From Natrinema salinisoli (GTDB taxonomy: Archaea > Halobacteriota > Halobacteria > Halobacteriales > Natrialbaceae): DNA of 64,000 bases. The first letter of the stretch is position 1; each line of letters opens with the position of its first letter. Below the pieces are notes generated by a model. That model was given only the letters and a program-made list of their open reading frames with translations. It made no database searches and was not told where the DNA came from. Where the stretch lies: NCBI RefSeq assembly GCF_020405205.1, contig NZ_CP084470.1:124001-188000 (forward strand), in the 5' to 3' direction. The translations under genes and the position numbers were made by a program. Shown here piece after piece: positions 1-64,000 of the stretch.

Positions 1-63
1 TCGGAGTTCCGCCGCGCGACCGAGACGCCGCCGTTCGAGATGGTTCTTGAAGCAAAACCGTAG
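1..63 (+). CDS. C-terminal end of an unidentified protein (partial)
   Basis: The first 20 codons read in frame to a TAG stop and end with EMVLEAKP. The gene begins outside the window. A short hydrophobic strand followed by a charged end resembles the last strand of many class I methyltransferases, but 20 residues do not allow a family call. No overlapping downstream partner is visible. Confidence 0.5.
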   Translation, partial: SEFRRATETPPFEMVLEAKP

Positions 64-495
64 CGGGGGTGGGTGCCTCATCTTGACACGAAGATATGAC
101 TACGGCGATTTCGAGGAGGCTGACGCGGTCTCGAAATCTGGCTCAGAACAGCAGAGGGTTCCGACGTACTCCTCGGCGGTGTGTCTCTGAGCGCGTATCC
201 GCCGGTCATCACGTCCAGCACGTTCTGAACCCTCGGGAGAACCCGGCGTCGAAACGCGTTGTAGGCGTCGGCCGATCGTCCCATGCTCGTTCGTGTCGGA
301 CCTGTGCCGGATAGCCCCGATATATTATCAGAAACGCCCTGCTGAATACAGAGGATGAATGCAGCACGGGGTTGCCGTTCATTTCACGTCGAGACGGGTG
401 AACCAGCCACTCACTATATCTGACTATCTAACGGCTGTTTCAGCGGGAAAGTAATCGAAAATAGGAATTCAATAGAACGACTTGGTTATGGTGTG
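64..495. other. Non-coding spacer
   Basis: No reading frame here has convincing haloarchaeal protein character. The open frames on both strands are arginine- and serine-rich, as expected of antisense shadows. The AT-rich stretch after base 315 carries one arm of an inverted repeat (322-360) whose partner lies beyond the next gene. Otherwise nothing was recognised. Confidence 0.5.
322..360. repeat. Left arm of an imperfect inverted repeat
   Basis: This stretch, centred on CTGAATACAGAGGATGA, reappears as its reverse complement at 1147-1184 with only a few mismatches. The two arms bracket the Tat-lipoprotein gene at 496-990. The arrangement could be the ends of a MITE-like or decayed mobile unit, or a duplicated regulatory sequence. 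Confidence 0.5.
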
Positions 496-990
496 TTATT
501 CCGCGGATGATTTTGTCTTAGTACCAATGACATCATAAATTTCTATGTGTTCCTTTTCTTCCAAATAGGACGCTTCCACCCGGTCGTACACCTGTGCTTG
601 ATTGAAATTTCCACGGTCCGTGAAATCGTTATGACAACCCGTGAAATCACCAGTTTCCCATTGCTCACTACAGACGCCGATCACATACCAAACCTGATCG
701 TATGTCTGGTGTAATTCGTCGTGAAACGTCTCCGAGATTATCGGTTGGTCGGGGTCATCAATGTAATCACTCCACTGTTCGGAAATATAGCCGTCCACTT
801 TTTCTGCACGATCATCAAAGGAAACATCCAGTACGGTCTCGTTGGCACCGTCCGTTGGCCAGCCTTCAATACTTTTTAGTTGAACATATCCACTCACGGA
901 ACCGGCACTCTCGAAGGCAGATGCCTGACAACCTGCCAATCCAGCAGCACCAGCTACTGCGCCTGCAAGAACATCACGTCGGGAGGGCAT
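496..990 (-). CDS. Tat-exported lipoprotein of unknown function
   Basis: This 164-residue protein opens with a twin-arginine signal (SRRDVLAGAVAGAAGLAGC). The cysteine at about position 21 is a lipobox, so the folded protein is probably exported by Tat and lipid-anchored on the outer face of the membrane, as is common in haloarchaea. The mature part is acidic, with two further cysteines near CSEQWETGDFTGC that could form a disulfide. No enzymatic motif was recognised. The ATG start is preferred because it places RR at residues 4-5. An inverted repeat flanks the gene, hinting that it may have moved as a unit. No operon partner is seen. Confidence 0.75.
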   Translation of the reverse strand: MPSRRDVLAGAVAGAAGLAGCQASAFESAGSVSGYVQLKSIEGWPTDGANETVLDVSFDDRAEKVDGYISEQWSDYIDDPDQPIISETFHDELHQTYDQVWYVIGVCSEQWETGDFTGCHNDFTDRGNFNQAQVYDRVEASYLEEKEHIEIYDVIGTKTKSSAE

Positions 991-1306
991 ACTCGATATA
1001 TATGAATAAAACTACATAAAAACACCGTTCTTTTGTGAAGGAACTCTACATTTTGTGATTTGTCAGAATGGCTGAGTCGCTGCGTGTCATCAGTGAAAAG
1101 AGCAGGCTGCTGCTCCACGTCTAAACAGAGGACCAGTTTCGCTGAACTCATCCTCTGTATTCAGCACGCAGTTTCTGATATTTCTCGGACAAATTGGTCA
1201 TCGCTCCGTTATCTGCTTGTCTGTACTTACCGATCACTATCCCTCGCAGATCCCGTCTCAGACTGTACCTCATTCGCGTTATCTATTCGGCGCGACCCCG
1301 GACGTC
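991..1306. other. Non-coding spacer
   Basis: This lies between the lipoprotein start and the 3' end of the interrupted CARDB gene. It holds the AT-rich promoter region of the lipoprotein and the second repeat arm (1147-1184). No supported gene was found. Confidence 0.45.
1147..1184. repeat. Right arm of an imperfect inverted repeat
   Basis: Contains TCATCCTCTGTATTCAG, the reverse complement of the core of the arm at 322-360. The arms are about 790 bp apart with one gene between them. Confidence 0.5.
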
Positions 1307-2199
1307 CTACGATTCCGTTCCGTGCACATAGACACCGCGTTCACCTGTGCTTTCGCCGGCTTCCACGCGTACCGGGAACTCGTCATCTCGAGCCACGGGA
1401 TACGTCTCGAACAGGAGATCGAGTTGTACCGTTTCACCGGCGGGGACCGTCACCATGCGACTGTCCACGGTCTCTGGATCGTTGCCGACCACCAGAGTGA
1501 CTTCGCGGGTCACCTCTGACGAACCGGTATTTTCGATCGCAGCAGTCACCTCGAGGGTCTCCCCACCAGTCACCGGACTATTTGTCTCCTGAATCCGCAC
1601 AGCAACGTTCCCTTCATTCGTATCATCATCGTTGTCTGCCGCGTCGGAAGCTTCGAACACCCACGGATTGACCGCCGTATACGCATTGTTGTCGTCGATC
1701 ACCCACGCCTCGATCTGACACGTGTGGCACCCCCCATCGATCTCGATCGAAGCAGTGTCACTGTCCCCTGCTACGTCGGACACGTCGAGGATTACGTCCG
1801 ACTGGGTCAGCCACCACACGACACGATCCAATTCGGCCGCGCCGCTCGAGACCTCGAGTTCGAGGGTAGCCGATTCGTCGGCGGCAAGTTCGCTGGTGGC
1901 TGGCCGGGCCACATCGACGGTTGGCGGTGCAGCCCCATCTTTAAACAGCGAGGGAACCCCGGCCTTTAGGCCGGGTGGGGAATCGCGTTACTTGACTACG
2001 CCGTCCACCGGTCAGTTGCCCCTCTCGGAATCCAACTGCTCTTGTGCGTAGAGCATCATCCCCTTCCAAGTCAGCCCGTGGCGTTTTTTGTCTCTTTCAA
2101 TCGCTCGTACTGGTCATCGTCTACCTCGAAATTGATGTTTGGCACAGATCATTGTTTCAATCCGTCATACTTAATTTTGTCTGGTCTTTATCTAAGTGT

Positions 2200-3435
2200 G
2201 TGTCTGATACGGTGACGAAAACGTTGCAGGCCACGCTCGCTACGCCCACAGCGGGCAAAGAGCACCGTCTGCAGCGTCTCTTGGACACCTACCGAGACGC
2301 ACTCCACGACGCGTTCGATGCTGGTGCGAATACGATGTCTGCCGTCAACGACGTTGTGACGCCCTATGACCTGCCGTATCAGGCCAAAGACGCGCTCAAG
2401 TCGTACGTCCCGAAGCTCCGGAAGACGTACAATGCCCGCGAACTCGACGACGAGCATCCGCTTCGACTCGTCAACCGGGCCGCGAAGTTCGACTACTCTG
2501 ATGAGCGCGAATACGGTTTTGTCTGGCAAGCACCGCAACCGGGTCGTGGGACGAATTTCTGGATCCCGCTTCGGATCAATCCCGAACAGGAATCGCTCTG
2601 GTTCGACCTTCTGAACGACGACGCGAAAGCGGGTGAACTCCGCCTGCAGCGTCGCCGAACGTCGTGGGAGTTGCACGTCACCGTTGAGTTCTCGGTCGCC
2701 GAACCGGCCGATCCGGACGATCCGACGTACATCGGTTTCGACGTCGGCGAGAGCTCGCTGATTACGGGCTGTGCCCTCAAGCGCGACGCACCACGGAAAC
2801 CGATGCTCGAAAGTGGTAGTCGGGCGCGACACCTCCGCAAAGAGATGTTCACGACGTTGAAGCGTCTGCAAGAACGTGACGCCGAACAGTGGCGAATCGA
2901 CGAGCGCTTTGATCACTACCAGAACGCCCTGACGGATATCGTCGAGAAGGCGTCTCGCGAAGCCGTCGAGTACGCCGAATCCTTTGACGACCCGGTGGTC
3001 GTACTCGAGGATCTCTCGTACATCCGGGAACGACTCGACTACGGCAAGTTCATGAACCGACGCTTGCACGCGTGGGCGTTCGCCCGCCTTCAGGGCCGTA
3101 TCGAAAACAAGGCCACCGAAGCCGGGATTCCGGTCGAGTACGTCAATGCGGCATACACGTCGCAGACCTGCCACGCATGCGACCGCCTCGGTCGTCGGGA
3201 CGAACAAGCAGAGTTCGTCTGTCCACACGACGACTGCCACGTAACAGAGTTCCAGGCAGATATCAACGCGGCCGCGAACATTGCCGGTCGCGTAGATCCG
3301 TGGGGAGAGAGCGTTCCTTGGGAACCGGAACGCGATGACTCGCCTCGGAACGGGAGTGCCAGTGACAGCGCCACAGTCCACCGTGAGACGAGCGAGAAAT
3401 CCTCGCAAATGACGCTCGCGGCCTACTCGGACTGA
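2200..3435 (+). CDS. tnpB: TnpB RNA-guided nuclease (OrfB) of an IS1341-type element
   Basis: About 411 residues from the GTG at 2200, the usual size for haloarchaeal TnpB. The frame stays open further upstream, but those codons lack protein character and fall in the element's left end. All three RuvC-like catalytic acids are present: D181 in IGFDVGES, E270 in VVLEDLS and D354 in QADINAAANIA. A zinc finger lies between the last two (TCHAC and CPHDDCH). TnpB proteins are guided by a transcript from the element's right end and cut the vacated donor site, favouring retention. The protein therefore looks catalytically intact, unlike the TnpB relic at 17546. It sits alone between the two end hairpins. 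Confidence 0.9.
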   Translation: MSDTVTKTLQATLATPTAGKEHRLQRLLDTYRDALHDAFDAGANTMSAVNDVVTPYDLPYQAKDALKSYVPKLRKTYNARELDDEHPLRLVNRAAKFDYSDEREYGFVWQAPQPGRGTNFWIPLRINPEQESLWFDLLNDDAKAGELRLQRRRTSWELHVTVEFSVAEPADPDDPTYIGFDVGESSLITGCALKRDAPRKPMLESGSRARHLRKEMFTTLKRLQERDAEQWRIDERFDHYQNALTDIVEKASREAVEYAESFDDPVVVLEDLSYIRERLDYGKFMNRRLHAWAFARLQGRIENKATEAGIPVEYVNAAYTSQTCHACDRLGRRDEQAEFVCPHDDCHVTEFQADINAAANIAGRVDPWGESVPWEPERDDSPRNGSASDSATVHRETSEKSSQMTLAAYSD

Positions 3436-3497
3436 AACCTGCCAGATTGGATTCCTCTCGTAGGGGAAGCCCCGCCGTGAACGGCGGGGAGGATGTC
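3380..3497 (+). ncRNA. Possible omega-RNA (right-end guide RNA of TnpB)
   Basis: In IS200/IS605 elements the 3' part of tnpB and the right end are transcribed as the TnpB guide RNA, with flanking host sequence as the guide. Here the right end forms a strong hairpin (3470-3489), and the host DNA immediately to its right (GTCACCGACGTACCAG) would be the guide. This is inferred from the family. No transcript can be seen from sequence, and the boundaries are approximate. Confidence 0.35.
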
Positions 3498-3894
3498 ACC
3501 GACGTACCAGTGTGTCGACCCCTGTTGATCCACCAGTTCGGAGTCAGCTTCGAAGAGGACCGTCGTCCCCGGTCGAACCGTTCGCTCGCTCACCAGCACT
3601 GGGTCCTCTCCCACGATAAAGTCCAGTTCGACGCGTTCATCGGTGGATCCGCTGTTCTCGAGTTCGGCAGTCACGTCGAGCAGGTCGACACCCTCGAGCG
3701 GTGCAGATGTCTCGACGATGTCGATACTGAGGTGGCCGGTCGCCCCACCACTATACGATACGAGTGGAACTGCGCCGAGACTGGTACCAGCGCCCACCAA
3801 ATACTGCCGGCGGTTCATGGCACTATCTACCTTGTCTAATGGCAAGAAGTTTCCATAGGCATCGGATCTGCTATTTCTTCAAGACTTTAACTCT

Positions 3895-3968
3895 TACAGG
3901 CTAGGGCCTCGTCCTCAAGGAGCAACGCAGGGAGCGCAAGCGACCGAGTAGGGTGGGGTAGTTCACTA
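3895..3968 (+). mobile_element. Right-end relic of another IS1341-type element
   Basis: A short GC-rich stretch ends in GAGTAGGGTGGGGTAGTTCAC. Nearly the same string (GAGTAGGGTAGTTCAC) ends the decayed tnpB at 17546-17950. Only the last few codons and terminal sequence remain. It sits immediately beyond the 3' end of msrA. Confidence 0.4.
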
Positions 3969-3977
3969 GAGTATCCA

Positions 3978-4592
3978 CTACTTTGACCGCGGCTCGTACG
4001 TCGAATTGACGAAGGGAACACTCACATCGCGGCCGGCGGCGTGGGCGTTCAGTTTCGCCGCTGCTGGGGACTCTCTGATCGCTCCGTCATCGTAGTCTGC
4101 CTCCGCGAACGCATCGGTGATCCACCGCTTTCCGCGAAGATTGAACTTCTGGTGGTAGTCTTCTGCGACGTGAAATCGGTCGAGCTTCTCGAGGCGCGTA
4201 TCGATCGTCTCTCGGCTGAACTCATTCCCGTCTAGATAGGATCGCAGCTGATCGCGTTGTACAGCCGTTTCAGTGAAGATGATGTTCTGGTACTGGCGTT
4301 TCCTAGACTGCTGGTAGGAATTGTGTTCGTCGAACGCCCGCTCGAGCAACTCACTGAATGAGAGTTGCTCGGGGTCGTACTCGAGTTGAACGACTTCCGT
4401 GTGATCTCCAATGGCTTCGTACGACGGGTCAGCTTTCGTCCCACCGGCGTACCCGACTCGCGTCCGTACGACGCCGTCTAACGCACCGAAGGTTGCATCG
4501 GGGCCCCAGAAACAGCCGAGACCGAACGTCGCTGTTGCCGTCTCTTCTGGTACCTGTCTATCGAACTCCGTGATGACTGTCGGTGTGAGCAT
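3978..4592 (-). CDS. msrA: Peptide methionine sulfoxide reductase MsrA
   Basis: Reduces methionine-S-sulfoxide in damaged proteins, acting in the cytoplasm. The GCFWG signature with catalytic cysteine C27 follows a short N-terminus. Family blocks VGYAGG, PSYEAIGDHTEVVQLEYDP, HNSYQQSRKRQYQNIIF and FHVAEDYHQKF are all present. The ATG at 4592 gives 204 residues. An in-frame start 108 nt further upstream would add a leader with no family similarity. Recycling cysteines near the C-terminus are not obvious, so the recycling route is unclear. The gene stands alone next to an insertion-element relic. Confidence 0.93.
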   Translation of the reverse strand: MLTPTVITEFDRQVPEETATATFGLGCFWGPDATFGALDGVVRTRVGYAGGTKADPSYEAIGDHTEVVQLEYDPEQLSFSELLERAFDEHNSYQQSRKRQYQNIIFTETAVQRDQLRSYLDGNEFSRETIDTRLEKLDRFHVAEDYHQKFNLRGKRWITDAFAEADYDDGAIRESPAAAKLNAHAAGRDVSVPFVNSTYEPRSK

Positions 4593-4803
4593 TATCGAGG
4601 GTGGTCGGTGTACTATGGAACACGTGGTGCACTCCATTAACTCTGTCTCGGCTTTCCGGTCCTGGATTTGAGGACTAAGACCTCTTTTCTGATAGTGCAT
4701 TCACGATGTCATCGACAGTGAAACTGTCTTCATAACCCTATGTCAACCCAACCACTTTTTTGTATGATAATTATGATTGTCCTGTAATGGGGAGTGATAC
4801 TGT

Positions 4804-60995: not shown

Positions 60996-62183
60996 TCATG
61001 ATTCTACAGCCTTGCTCAATTCGGTCGTAATCGTATCGAGATCAGCCCGTACGTCATCGCGGATTTCGTCCAGCAGGGTTTTGATTTCGCCGGCCGTTTC
61101 CTCGATGTCTGAGCACTTCGTTTTCACACTGCTGAATCGGTCGATAGAGTCACGAATTTCCTCGACCTGTGCCTGAATCGTCTCTGTATCGACTGATTCC
61201 CCAGTGTCAACATGGGACTGGATCGTTCGCATTCGCGCCCAGTTCCAAGCGATGTTGAGAAAGCCGGGATCGATGTCGTCATCTTCGTCGGCGGAGAGAG
61301 CGACACATAGAATTTCCTGATCGTATTCTTGGAAATAGCCGACCTTGTCTGGAACATACGACTCGCATTCCGTGACGAAAATCCCGTACTCAGCGTCCCT
61401 GTTCTCGATAGCTTCCGCCATCTCATCTTTGATGTCTTGAGCGTAGTAGTCCTTCTCGCTCTTCGCTTCGACGACGATGTCTTGGCCCGTCTCTCCGAGT
61501 GTCAGCACGTAGTCTCCGACGTCTCTCCCTGGAATTTCGCCTTCCTTGTCGCCAGTATGCTCGACTTCGTGGGTAGTGTTGTAGACAAGCGTATCAAGCA
61601 GATTGCCGAGCGTCTCCTCGAAACTCTCGCCTTTCTTCCAGCTTTGCTGACGCTCCTCCTCACGACCTGCCTCCCGCTCCAGTGCTTGGCGAATGTCGCG
61701 GATCTCCTGTTTCAGTCGATACGTGGGGGTTCCCTCCACGTCCGGATCTAATGCGTCCTGAATTTTGCTGCCGTCCTCACCCAAGACGGATTCTAACCGC
61801 TCGGTGAGTTCACCGTCTTCGCCGAACGCGTCCTCAATATGATCTCGGAGTGTTCCATCCTCTCCGAGGTGCTCAGTGAGAGCTTCCTCGAGATCACCGT
61901 CCTCGCCGAACGTCTCCTCGAGTTCGTCGCGAACCTGCTCGATTTCTTCCTCGAAGTTCGACTGTAGTGACTCGAACTCTCGCTTGACGTGCTCAACGTC
62001 TTTCGTCGTTTCGCTCAGTTGGAGCGTCATCATCCCCACTCGGAGTGCACGCTCGACGACGTCGACCTGTTCTGAATCGTCGTACTCTGCAAGATAGTTG
62101 GCGAGGTCTTCGTCGTGGACGGTAAACTGGACTGAGACCTCATTCGTATCCGGGTTTACCTGGACATCGCGTGCAGTTGCCAT
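60996..62183 (-). CDS. Coiled-coil protein with FGEDG repeats and PD-(D/E)XK-like nuclease domain
   Basis: 395 residues from ATG 62183 (MATARDVQVNPDT); the longer frame is not protein-like. The N-terminus (about 1-50) resembles a short beta/helix domain, followed by coiled coil. Four repeats of about 17 residues each contain (F/L)GEDG (about residues 95-150: TFGEDGDLEEALTEHLGEDG, AFGEDGELTERLESVLGEDG). A DUF2130-like endonuclease fold follows: DYVLTLGETGQDIVVEAKSE (D-x(n)-E-x-K) and AEYGIFVTECESYVPDKV. The C-terminus is coiled again. It lies 135 bp downstream of the QueC-like gene, same strand. Confidence 0.7.
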   Translation of the reverse strand: MATARDVQVNPDTNEVSVQFTVHDEDLANYLAEYDDSEQVDVVERALRVGMMTLQLSETTKDVEHVKREFESLQSNFEEEIEQVRDELEETFGEDGDLEEALTEHLGEDGTLRDHIEDAFGEDGELTERLESVLGEDGSKIQDALDPDVEGTPTYRLKQEIRDIRQALEREAGREEERQQSWKKGESFEETLGNLLDTLVYNTTHEVEHTGDKEGEIPGRDVGDYVLTLGETGQDIVVEAKSEKDYYAQDIKDEMAEAIENRDAEYGIFVTECESYVPDKVGYFQEYDQEILCVALSADEDDDIDPGFLNIAWNWARMRTIQSHVDTGESVDTETIQAQVEEIRDSIDRFSSVKTKCSDIEETAGEIKTLLDEIRDDVRADLDTITTELSKAVES

Positions 62184-62318
62184 ATTGCTACCGTATACTC
62201 CAGTTATGTTAGAATTGGTGTCGGAATGACGGAATCCATCTGTAGACACCAATACACGGCCCGGAAATAGCACAAAAGTCGTAAGGGTGACGGATATCAA
62301 TCAGGCATCATCCGTAAA

Positions 62319-63761
62319 CTAACATAAGTTGGCGAGCTCTTCGTCCTCTAACGAAAGAAACTCTGTAACGTAGTTTTCCAGCGTTGGGTTATCAGCTGCG
62401 AAGAATTCCACGGTTTGGAAGATCTCTCTACTAAATCGCTCATAGAGCCCCAATATATCGGGGTCAAGAAGCTCGGGGTTAGATGAAACCAGCTCCCCTT
62501 GGGTCGAAGTCTGGATACGGTACGCGAACGAGAGATGAGCATTCAAGCCTAACAAAAACACTGACAAACTAGACTGTCGACTCTGGTTGGGTTGAGCAAT
62601 ATTCTCAGCATTCACTTTCGAGAAGTCGAAGTCCAATAGATGATTCTTGTCTAACATCAATTCGTCTGGCTGTATTTTGTGTTCGCTGTTTACTAGACCA
62701 ATGATACGGATAAGACAAGGAATACACTCACCACAGTTGTAAGGGTGTCCGGAAGCGTCCTTTCCTTGTGACAATTCACGCGGATGCGGACATGTTCGAG
62801 TGAAGAAAATATCTGCCTTGTTTGGGATACAGTCGACAACCTCTTTCTTCGTGTAATCAAGGAACGGATTGCTGATTTTCAGCTTACGGTCCGGGAATAG
62901 ATCGTCAAAAATGCGGTTCAAGCTCTTTACGAATAGCGGATGAACTGTGCGAGTCGTCGTCCAGCCAGATTCTAGCGATGAGAACCGCGATAGGACGCCA
63001 TTCTCGGGAACAAAGATATCATCAACATCGAGGGCCACCGCGACAGCGGCGGCGAAAGCGAAGTACATGAACGAACGAGTGAACTGCGTATCCTCATATG
63101 CATAGAATTCTTCGTCGACACCTATTGAGGTCAGATCACCATCAAAGAGATGGTCAAAATTCCGCACTAGATGACCGACGTTTCGACCATGATCTACACT
63201 GACAAAGTGTGGATTGTACCCGTCCTCAGCGAGGTGAAATCGGCCACCCAAACTATCTAACCCGCCAGAAAAAAGGGCGACAGAATCAGCCTCAGGCAGC
63301 TGATCACGATATCCATCAGCACCATCGTCAATAGACTGGTTTTCGTCAATCGCATCGATGAACCGATACTGGAAATTATCACGCGAGATGAAGCTAATAG
63401 CGTGGTTCAATTCAGGCTCTATTGGTCGCCATTTCTCCACGTCAGCAACAGGGTGCAAAATCTGTATCTGCCGTGATTTCAGCATTTCCTCCCCATCATC
63501 CTTCGCGCCAGTAGGCCCCCGCTTCACCAAACGATCTGCAACGTATGTACCGAGTGCGAGCTCAACTAATGCCGTGACTGCTGGAGGGGGACTCTGTCCG
63601 AACAGGTCGTTTAGAACCTCCTTCTTGTACTTTATCAGACGACCATCCTCCGTTTCAGTCTCGGTGCGATAATCGTCAACGACGATTGTGTAGTCCGAGT
63701 CAGCTTCGCTAAGATTTGATCCAGTCCCGGACTTGATCAAGAATCGCTTAGTTCCCTTCAA
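62319..63761 (-). CDS. qatC: QueC-like (QatC-type) protein of a putative anti-phage operon
   Basis: About 480 residues, twice the size of housekeeping QueC, as in QatC of the QatABCD defence system. A PP-loop SVALFSGGLDSLGG lies near residue 165. Deazaguanine-synthase-like zinc cysteines follow in RTCPHPRELS and HPYNCGECIPCLIR. The FVSVDHGRNVGHLV strand and the helical C-terminus (FLLGLNAHLSFAYRIQTSTQ) fit this group. No ATG exists at the 5' end. TTG 63761 (overlapping the upstream stop) or TTG 63785 are the candidates. AT-rich relative to the transfer genes. Upstream lies a damaged gene, and downstream a nuclease-like gene rather than a TatD-type qatD. Confidence 0.72.
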   Translation of the reverse strand: MKGTKRFLIKSGTGSNLSEADSDYTIVVDDYRTETETEDGRLIKYKKEVLNDLFGQSPPPAVTALVELALGTYVADRLVKRGPTGAKDDGEEMLKSRQIQILHPVADVEKWRPIEPELNHAISFISRDNFQYRFIDAIDENQSIDDGADGYRDQLPEADSVALFSGGLDSLGGRFHLAEDGYNPHFVSVDHGRNVGHLVRNFDHLFDGDLTSIGVDEEFYAYEDTQFTRSFMYFAFAAAVAVALDVDDIFVPENGVLSRFSSLESGWTTTRTVHPLFVKSLNRIFDDLFPDRKLKISNPFLDYTKKEVVDCIPNKADIFFTRTCPHPRELSQGKDASGHPYNCGECIPCLIRIIGLVNSEHKIQPDELMLDKNHLLDFDFSKVNAENIAQPNQSRQSSLSVFLLGLNAHLSFAYRIQTSTQGELVSSNPELLDPDILGLYERFSREIFQTVEFFAADNPTLENYVTEFLSLEDEELANLC

Positions 63762-64000
63762 AGTCCTCGTCCTCCCATGCTTCAATCATCTCGTGCATAG
63801 TATCTCGGATCATTTCCTCTACATCCTCATGCTCTAGTAGCTCTACGTTGGCATCTTCGAAAATTGGAGCGAGTTCGGGCTGGTCTTGGATCTTTTCGAC
63901 GAGTTCATCTGCCCGACTGGCACACTGGTCTCGCAGCTACTCTTCAAATTCTTCTAACTCTTGATCTGTATTGACGTTCTGGCTGAAGTGAAGCTGAAGG
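63748..64000 (-). pseudogene. 3' part of the gene upstream of the QueC-like gene, with an in-frame TAG
   Basis: In frame with the stop at 63748, the minus strand reads from the window edge LQLHFSQNVNTDQELEEFEE, then TAG (63937-63939), then LRDQCASRADELVEKIQDQP, APIFEDANVELLEHEDVEEM and HEMIEAWEDEDFEGN. Protein character is equal on both sides of the TAG, and no usable start follows it. The gene is therefore either nonsense-mutated or carries a sequencing error. By position it would be the qatB equivalent. The fragment is acidic and helical, with no family recognised. Confidence 0.5.

What the first reader, a model, noticed from the sequence alone, without database searches (positions are those of the whole stretch)
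60996..64000. QatC-like operon in which a repeat-rich PD-(D/E)XK-like protein takes the place of QatD
Known QatABCD anti-phage systems end with a QueC-like QatC followed by a TatD-family nuclease. Here a large QueC-like protein (SGGLDS PP-loop, CGECIPC zinc site) is followed on the same strand by a protein with coiled coil, four FGEDG repeats and a D-x(n)-E-x-K nuclease motif. A partial gene precedes it. This may be a variant defence system with a swapped nuclease effector.
Basis: partly seen in the sequence, partly recalled or inferred. Interest (0 to 1): 0.72.

Follow-up and report, generated by a model that had tools for sequence, protein, structure and literature searches.

The report
Archaeal QatC operon with split partner
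In some salt-loving archaea and a few other archaea, a relative of the bacterial virus-defence enzyme QatC travels with two small partner genes instead of the usual three companions, and often in hosts that seem unable to make the molecule such enzymes were thought to need.

Summary
The QueC-like protein (62319-63785, minus) is a true QatC relative. The neighbour (60996-62300) has an invariant D-x14-E-x-K motif, but it is not the partner: it is absent beside five of the seven closest QatC genes (missing as a 1.3-kb indel in one) and occurs without QatC on other plasmids.

The real operon begins past the window end: B1 (153 aa, MGTA... start), B2 (about 136 aa, overlapping) and QatC. B1 was found in 11 of 391 Halobacteria genomes, always beside QatC; three other archaea of the phylum have the same layout. 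No QatA or QatD lies beside it. This QatC keeps the diagnostic Thr-x-Thr, PP-loop and zinc cysteines but forms its own clade. B1's invariant N-terminal glycine matches QatB's acceptor; B1+B2 look, weakly, like a QatB split in two.

Six of 11 haloarchaeal hosts lack QueE, which makes CDG (7-carboxy-7-deazaguanine), so host-made CDG seems unnecessary for this QatC branch. The window's own B2 has a premature stop, so this copy may be defective. Most likely: a compact N-terminal-glycine protein-modification defence module, a new variant of a known kind. Function is untested.

The parts
62319..63785 (-). QatC-type QueC-like protein, 488 aa (RefSeq starts the Halobiforma and Halolamina copies 8 codons later)
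   Evidence: PADLOC QatC 5.2e-38; profile A3 aligns full length to PDB QatC 9vlk_A, 2.7e-147 (A3 also holds bacterial QatC rows); T278, T280, R237, S173/G175/D177/S178, C332/C351/C354/C357 and R360 conserved
63748..64000 (-). 3' part of B2 (whole ORF would run 63748-64158, past the window end; 136 aa in the closest relative). In-frame stop at 63937-63939 in this genome; intact copies exist in relatives. B1 follows upstream at 64127-64588 in window numbering (G000:C2:188127-188588), 153 aa, minus strand, starts MGTATRGRSGASNAGYEDAK
   Evidence: RefSeq calls the Halobiforma and Halolamina copies of B1 and B2 separate hypothetical proteins
60996..62183 (-). Nuclease-like passenger gene (Mrr/PD-(D/E)XK-like, coiled coil, four [FL]GEDG units), likely start at 62183; longest ORF to 62300. 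Not part of the conserved operon

Best explanation
The QueC-like gene is the third gene of a compact archaeal operon, B1-B2-QatC, a relative of bacterial qatBC. After removal of its first methionine, B1 would expose a conserved glycine on a short Ser/Ala/Gly-rich tail; QatC, held to B1 and B2, would use ATP to activate a small carboxylate and join it to that glycine, and modified B1(-B2) would act against an infecting virus. B1 and B2 together stand in for single-chain QatB, probably as a split QatB. The nuclease-like gene is an independent, swappable defence gene in the slot 3' of QatC. The window's copy has a premature stop in B2 and may be inactive. Shown: operon, conservation, selection, diagnostic residues, separate clade, absence of qatA/qatD, passenger status of the nuclease, hosts without QueE. 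Inferred: defence function, glycine modification, the role of B2, homology of B1+B2 to QatB.
For: B1 in 11 of 391 Halobacteria genomes (12 places), each beside a QatC; the two QatC genomes without B1, of 13, have QatC at a contig end (G144) or as a fragment at one (G154). B2 is an overlapping ORF between B1 and QatC in the 12 loci with B1, broken only in the window genome. The same B1-B2-C layout occurs in three genomes of the phylum outside Halobacteria. dN/dS 0.05-0.11 for B1 and 0.03-0.07 for B2 across the pairs with finite dS (some dS values are above 1). G2 is invariant in the 12 B1 proteins, and those of the other archaea start MGS or MGG. T278 in 40 of 40 and T280 in 39 of 40 QatC-type proteins, where the window genome's own canonical QueC has YPDC nearby. 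In qatABCD, QatB-QatC alone can defend and QatB G2D abolishes defence (PMC13279940, Results and Discussion read). hhalign of B1+B2 with QatB: P 0.0012, collinear from residue 1; with B2-B1 in the wrong order 0.038; without the first 15 residues 0.01, with 0 of 150 column shuffles as high.
Against: No functional data. No QatB match for B1 or B2 in NCBIfam, PADLOC or PDB sequences. Profile support for QatB homology is weak, and one of 150 and one of 200 column shuffles scored above the observed value, an outlier near 131-136 that I could not explain. A single-sequence model of B1 was useless (pLDDT 46); that of B2 was fair (pLDDT 78), but its Foldseek and VIA rows held no QatB. B1's tail is short and lacks the Pro16/Trp18 that the paper stresses. 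The window's B2 is broken.
Confidence: 0.6

Rival explanations
1. One reading: a Qat variant in which the nuclease-like protein replaces QatD as effector.
For: Same strand directly downstream of QatC in two genomes; coherent nuclease motif; the slot 3' of QatC holds different defence-like genes in different plasmids, which could be read as exchangeable effectors.
Against: Present in 2 of 14 haloarchaeal QatC loci; L019 has intact B1-B2-C without it; homologues live on plasmids without a QatC match.
Confidence: 0.1
2. B1 and B2 are the QatC partners but are not homologous to QatB: an independent acceptor protein plus a second factor recruited by the same kind of enzyme, as in type IV CBASS where the acceptor is a CD-NTase.
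For: No QatB family model matches B1 or B2; weak profile scores; no QatB row for the B2 model.
Against: Collinear profile alignment from residue 1, lower when the order is swapped or the target reversed; similar combined length (about 290 aa against 234-296 aa for 17 QatB).
Confidence: 0.25
3. The QatC-like protein is a metabolic enzyme of the 7-deazaguanine pathway, not a defence protein.
For: PF06508 membership; a PHROG labelled 'QueC-like queuosine biosynthesis' matches at 5.5e-93.
Against: The window genome has its own queD-queE-queC cluster; the substrate Tyr/Asp pair is replaced by Thr-x-Thr; sporadic occurrence (13 of 391); several hosts without queE.
Confidence: 0.05

Closest known systems
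QatB-QatC core of the bacterial qatABCD system
   Same: QatC-type enzyme with Thr-x-Thr, PP-loop and zinc site; upstream partner with an N-terminal Met-Gly motif; overlapping genes
   Different: No qatA or qatD; partner is two proteins; QatC below the NCBIfam QatC cut-off (141.6 against 280 bits) and in a separate clade (halo 99/98, qatABCD 98/95)
Cap9 of type IV CBASS
   Same: QueC-like enzyme thought to act on the N-terminal glycine of a partner protein
   Different: Partner here is not a CD-NTase; Cap9 keeps the canonical Tyr/Asp substrate pair (PMC13279940), absent here
Archaea-restricted QueC clusters 7, 8 and 10 of Libby et al. 2026 (PMC13329287)
   Same: Archaeal QueC-like proteins whose role those authors leave undetermined
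   Different: I could not test whether the present proteins fall into those clusters
Viral-contig QatC-like pairs
   Same: QatC-like enzyme preceded by an MG-start partner
   Different: Partner is one chain of about 262 aa starting MGHxxLG; the QatC-like ORF is mostly about 600-715 aa long

Membership tests
qatABCD defence system | KAP-family ATPase QatA beside qatB/qatC | tested here: not met
   No QatA HMM match in the haloarchaeal loci L002 and L018-L030 or in L059, L060, L144 (independent controls L073, L101, L114, L115 were found; L023, L026 and L030 are cut short by contig ends). KAP family PF07693 in 2 of 14 genomes with B1-B2-C, not beside QatC, and none in the window genome
qatABCD defence system | TatD-family nuclease QatD beside qatC | tested here: not met
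   No QatD HMM match in the same loci
qatABCD defence system | single-chain QatB with MGTS N-terminus | tested here: not met
   Two ORFs; MGTA or MGSA in haloarchaea; no NCBIfam QatB match
qatABCD defence system | partner homologous to QatB | tested here: inconclusive
   hhalign P 0.0012, collinear; controls; fold search of B2 silent
QatC-type QueC-like proteins | SGGxDS PP-loop, four zinc cysteines, Thr-x-Thr in place of Tyr/Asp, N- and C-terminal extensions | tested here: met
   correspondence of Thr-x-Thr to T278/T280 of P. aeruginosa QatC rests on the TRTxHP motif in the alignment, not on a printed alignment to that chain
QatC-type QueC-like proteins | score over the NCBIfam QatC equivalog cut-off | tested here: not met
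   141.6 bits against 280
QatC-type QueC-like proteins | modifies the N-terminal glycine of its partner | not testable with these tools
   needs mass spectrometry; also unresolved for bacterial QatC (PMC13279940)
type IV CBASS (Cap9) | CD-NTase partner and Tyr/Asp substrate pair | tested here: not met
   Partner B1 has no cyclase match; Thr-x-Thr instead
Mrr-type PD-(D/E)XK nuclease (neighbour gene) | Mrr_cat domain over Pfam cut-off | tested here: inconclusive
   19.4 bits against 21; 5 of 6 homologues match at E<=0.1
Mrr-type PD-(D/E)XK nuclease (neighbour gene) | conserved D and E-x-K | tested here: met
   invariant in 6 homologues

The most novel reading that the evidence does not exclude
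B1-B2-QatC is an archaeal immune module that modifies the N-terminal glycine of a two-piece QatB with something other than CDG: it occurs, intact, in hosts with no recognisable CDG synthase (QueE) as often as in hosts with one. It would be a QatC branch in which the long-sought substrate is not a deazaguanine made by the host, and a small-genome model (three genes, no ATPase, no nuclease) for how QatBC defends.
Probability: 0.4. Interest if true: 0.78.

Novelty: new variant of a known kind. Interest (0 to 1): 0.6.

Why it matters
What bacterial QatC joins to QatB, and how QatBC stops phages, is an open question in the 2026 structural paper (PMC13279940). A three-gene archaeal relative without QatA or QatD isolates the core, and its occurrence in complete or near-complete genomes that lack QueE argues that CDG made by the host is not required. 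This is directly testable in Haloferax volcanii laboratory strains. It may also give a role to some of the archaeal QueC-like clusters left unexplained in PMC13329287.

Tried and rejected
Nuclease as QatD substitute: rejected on occurrence and on the L019 indel.

Programmed frameshift fusing B1 and B2: rejected as a general rule, because the frame of B2 relative to B1 is +1 in the haloarchaea, -1 (ATGA overlap) in L060 and in frame with an adjacent TGA-ATG in L059.

Virus-borne origin: no relative of B1 or B2 in viral contigs (pattern-based scans) or in the phage records. The window's QatC matched 2 phage records, both Listeria phage at 29% identity.

Structure: single-sequence models only, because the structure tool states that it takes the window's own proteins and loci from the search for related loci or the DNA search; L017 was the one such locus with B1 and B2. 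B1 failed (pLDDT 46). The B2 model gave no Foldseek match at E<=0.001 and no QatB row, and its best VIA Z was 5.8. I count this as no information.

Link of the system to QueE: none found. QueE is missing in 6 of 11 haloarchaeal genomes with the system and in 24 of 66 without, Fisher P 0.32 (present/absent read by hand at E<=1e-70, with the best match of the genomes scored absent no better than 1e-14).

Full report
What is in the window. The contig is G000:C2, 400,082 bases; the window is 124001-188000 of it. A genome of the same genus, G375, has QatC places on contigs whose lengths and coordinates equal those of the Natrinema sp. DC36 plasmids, so Natrinema is a likely genus; this is an inference. 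The finding's two ORFs exist. The QueC-like protein is a QatC relative: PADLOC 5.2e-38, PDB QatC 9zee 3.2e-22 and 9vlk 7.2e-18, NCBIfam QatC 141.6 bits, under the cut-off of 280.

The operon. Past the window end lies a 153-aa gene that starts MGTATRGRSGASNAGYEDAK (B1; L002:4127-4588). Between B1 and QatC a second ORF (B2, 136 aa in L018) overlaps B1 by 32 nt and, by RefSeq's starts, QatC by 14 nt; RefSeq lists all three in Halobiforma and Halolamina as hypothetical proteins. In the window genome B2 carries an in-frame stop at window 63937-63939, while the other 11 B2 copies aligned are open. B1 and B2 are real genes: dN/dS is 0.05-0.11 and 0.03-0.07 over the pairs with finite dS, no higher than QatC at 0.08-0.21 (several dS values exceed 1 and one pair could not be estimated).

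Distribution. QatC: 13 of 391 Halobacteria genomes at 1e-10. B1: 11 of 391 at 1e-3, 12 places, each next to a QatC place; the remaining two QatC genomes have QatC against a contig end (G144; G154, a fragment with a stop). An order-wide draw gave 10 of 392, all genomes seen before. A phylum-wide draw for QatC gave 5 of 392, including two genomes outside Halobacteria, G583 and G632; searches around these gave 1 of 129 (G632 itself) and 2 of 130 (G583 and G842). These three have the same layout: an MGS or MGG protein of about 150 aa, a protein of about 95 aa, then QatC. Seven haloarchaeal QatC form a close group (83-98% identity to the window's), and five loci with B1 a distant one (26-31%).

Which QatC. 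In 40 QatC-type proteins T278 is kept in 40, T280 in 39, R237 in 40, C332/C354/C357 in 40 and C351 in 39, whereas the window genome's own canonical QueC has a YPDC motif near that place. The second PP-loop glycine is D in five and E in two. In a maximum-likelihood tree the haloarchaeal proteins form one group (99/98), apart from qatABCD (98/95) and from ten viral-contig proteins (94/96); the three other archaeal ones join only weakly (76/94) on long branches.

B1, B2 and QatB. QatB of bacterial loci starts MGTS (17 of 17 sequences collected; nine of these starts were chosen by me at the MGTS motif, six of them by script in loci without a usable annotated start or to check one). PMC13279940 (abstract, Results and Discussion read) reports that QatB and QatC alone defend against some phages, that QatB G2D abolishes defence, and that QatC's reaction is unknown. 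PMC13329287 (abstract and three results sections read) leaves three archaeal QueC clusters without a role. PMC11996544 (abstract only) reports deazaguanylation in type IV CBASS. Profile comparison of B1+B2 with QatB gives P 0.0012, aligned from residue 1; the swapped order gives 0.038, a reversed QatB 0.079, and loss of the first 15 residues 0.01. One shuffle of 150, and one of 200 in an earlier run, scored far above the observed value for a reason I could not find; the others stayed below it. B1+B2 of the other archaea align to the haloarchaeal ones at P 0.00023 over 214 columns in that direction, but the same pair in the other direction gave only 0.049 over 46 columns. Family models for QatB do not match. 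I therefore hold QatB homology as likely but unproven (about 0.6 given everything).

The nuclease-like gene. It is found in 2 of 14 haloarchaeal QatC loci. Alignment of the window region with L019 shows homology up to 32 nt past QatC, then 1312 nt in the window against about 204 nt in L019, then homology again. In L020 and L021 that place holds a cyclase (PADLOC 1.1e-81 for the L021 copy) and a Cap15-type effector (Pfam 2.7e-31); L023 has the cyclase and its contig ends there. Homologues at 42-53% identity lie on five other haloarchaeal plasmids. So it is a passenger of a variable slot. A role as optional helper is not excluded.

CDG supply. The window genome has a queD-queE-queC cluster. With a QueE profile (80 genomes, chosen as the 14 with the system plus the 66 handles G001-G067 less G051), five of 11 haloarchaeal genomes with the system have QueE (E<=1e-105; <=1e-138) and six do not (best 2e-11 to 5e-5, partial radical-SAM matches): G074, G093, G126, G206, G317, G318. 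Five of those six also lack a full-length QueC match; G318 has one at 1.6e-25. B1, B2 and QatC are open in all six. In the other 66 genomes 42 have QueE and 24 do not, so the system is neither tied to QueE nor avoids it (Fisher P 0.32). Together with the Thr-x-Thr pair this points away from host-made CDG as the substrate. Uptake of a deazapurine from outside, or inactive systems in those hosts, would weaken the argument.

Print. I searched the held library with QatC/QueC/defense, QatB/archaea, qatABCD, archaeosine/haloarchaea/preQ0/QueE, Cap9/deazaguanylation, QatB/QatC, haloarchaea/QatC, haloarchaea/defense systems/Qat/plasmid and QueC-like/archaea. From listings, abstracts and the sections named above I saw no description of this archaeal operon; most subscription journals and bioRxiv are not held.

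Noticed in passing
L064-L143 (viral contigs): 80 loci with QatC relatives (of 114 found; 80 kept). Of the 72 with at least 900 nt upstream, 63 have an MG-start partner just before QatC: 59 MGH type (about 262 aa, MGHxxLG) and 4 MGTS; 9 gave none by my motif. In the MGH type the QatC-like ORF is mostly 600-715 aa, with a C-terminal part that matched no Pfam family in the one protein scanned. A second QatBC-like pair, apparently without QatA or QatD.
   Followed up: partly
L151 (Mesorhizobium sp. AR10 plasmid), 1-4604: CHAT-domain gene, a Gly-rich protein with an MGSSGSG start, a QatC-like gene (TRH instead of TRT) and an ASCH-domain gene in a row: another QatBC-like arrangement.
   Followed up: no
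L021:9168-10717 and L020:6010-7559: CBASS-type cyclase plus Cap15-type effector directly 3' of QatC, in the slot where the window has the nuclease-like gene.
   Followed up: partly
L024, L025, L027, L028, L029 QatC; L059, L144 QatC: PP-loop reads SDG (five haloarchaeal) or SEG (two other archaea) instead of SGG.
   Followed up: no
L059 and L144, B1: Strongly hydrophobic stretch (Kyte-Doolittle 2.4-2.5 over 19 residues) in B1, unlike the haloarchaeal B1 (0.6-1.2): possible membrane contact.
   Followed up: no
window 62319-63785: PHROG phrog_1550 ('QueC-like queuosine biosynthesis', moron) matches this QatC at 5.5e-93 over its full length, yet the phage and viral collections here gave no close relative; perhaps a provirus or plasmid entry.
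   Followed up: partly
L152 (Listeria phage LM 4-11-1, unverified record): QatC-like ORF of 400 aa preceded by an MGTN-start ORF (about 206 aa).
   Followed up: no
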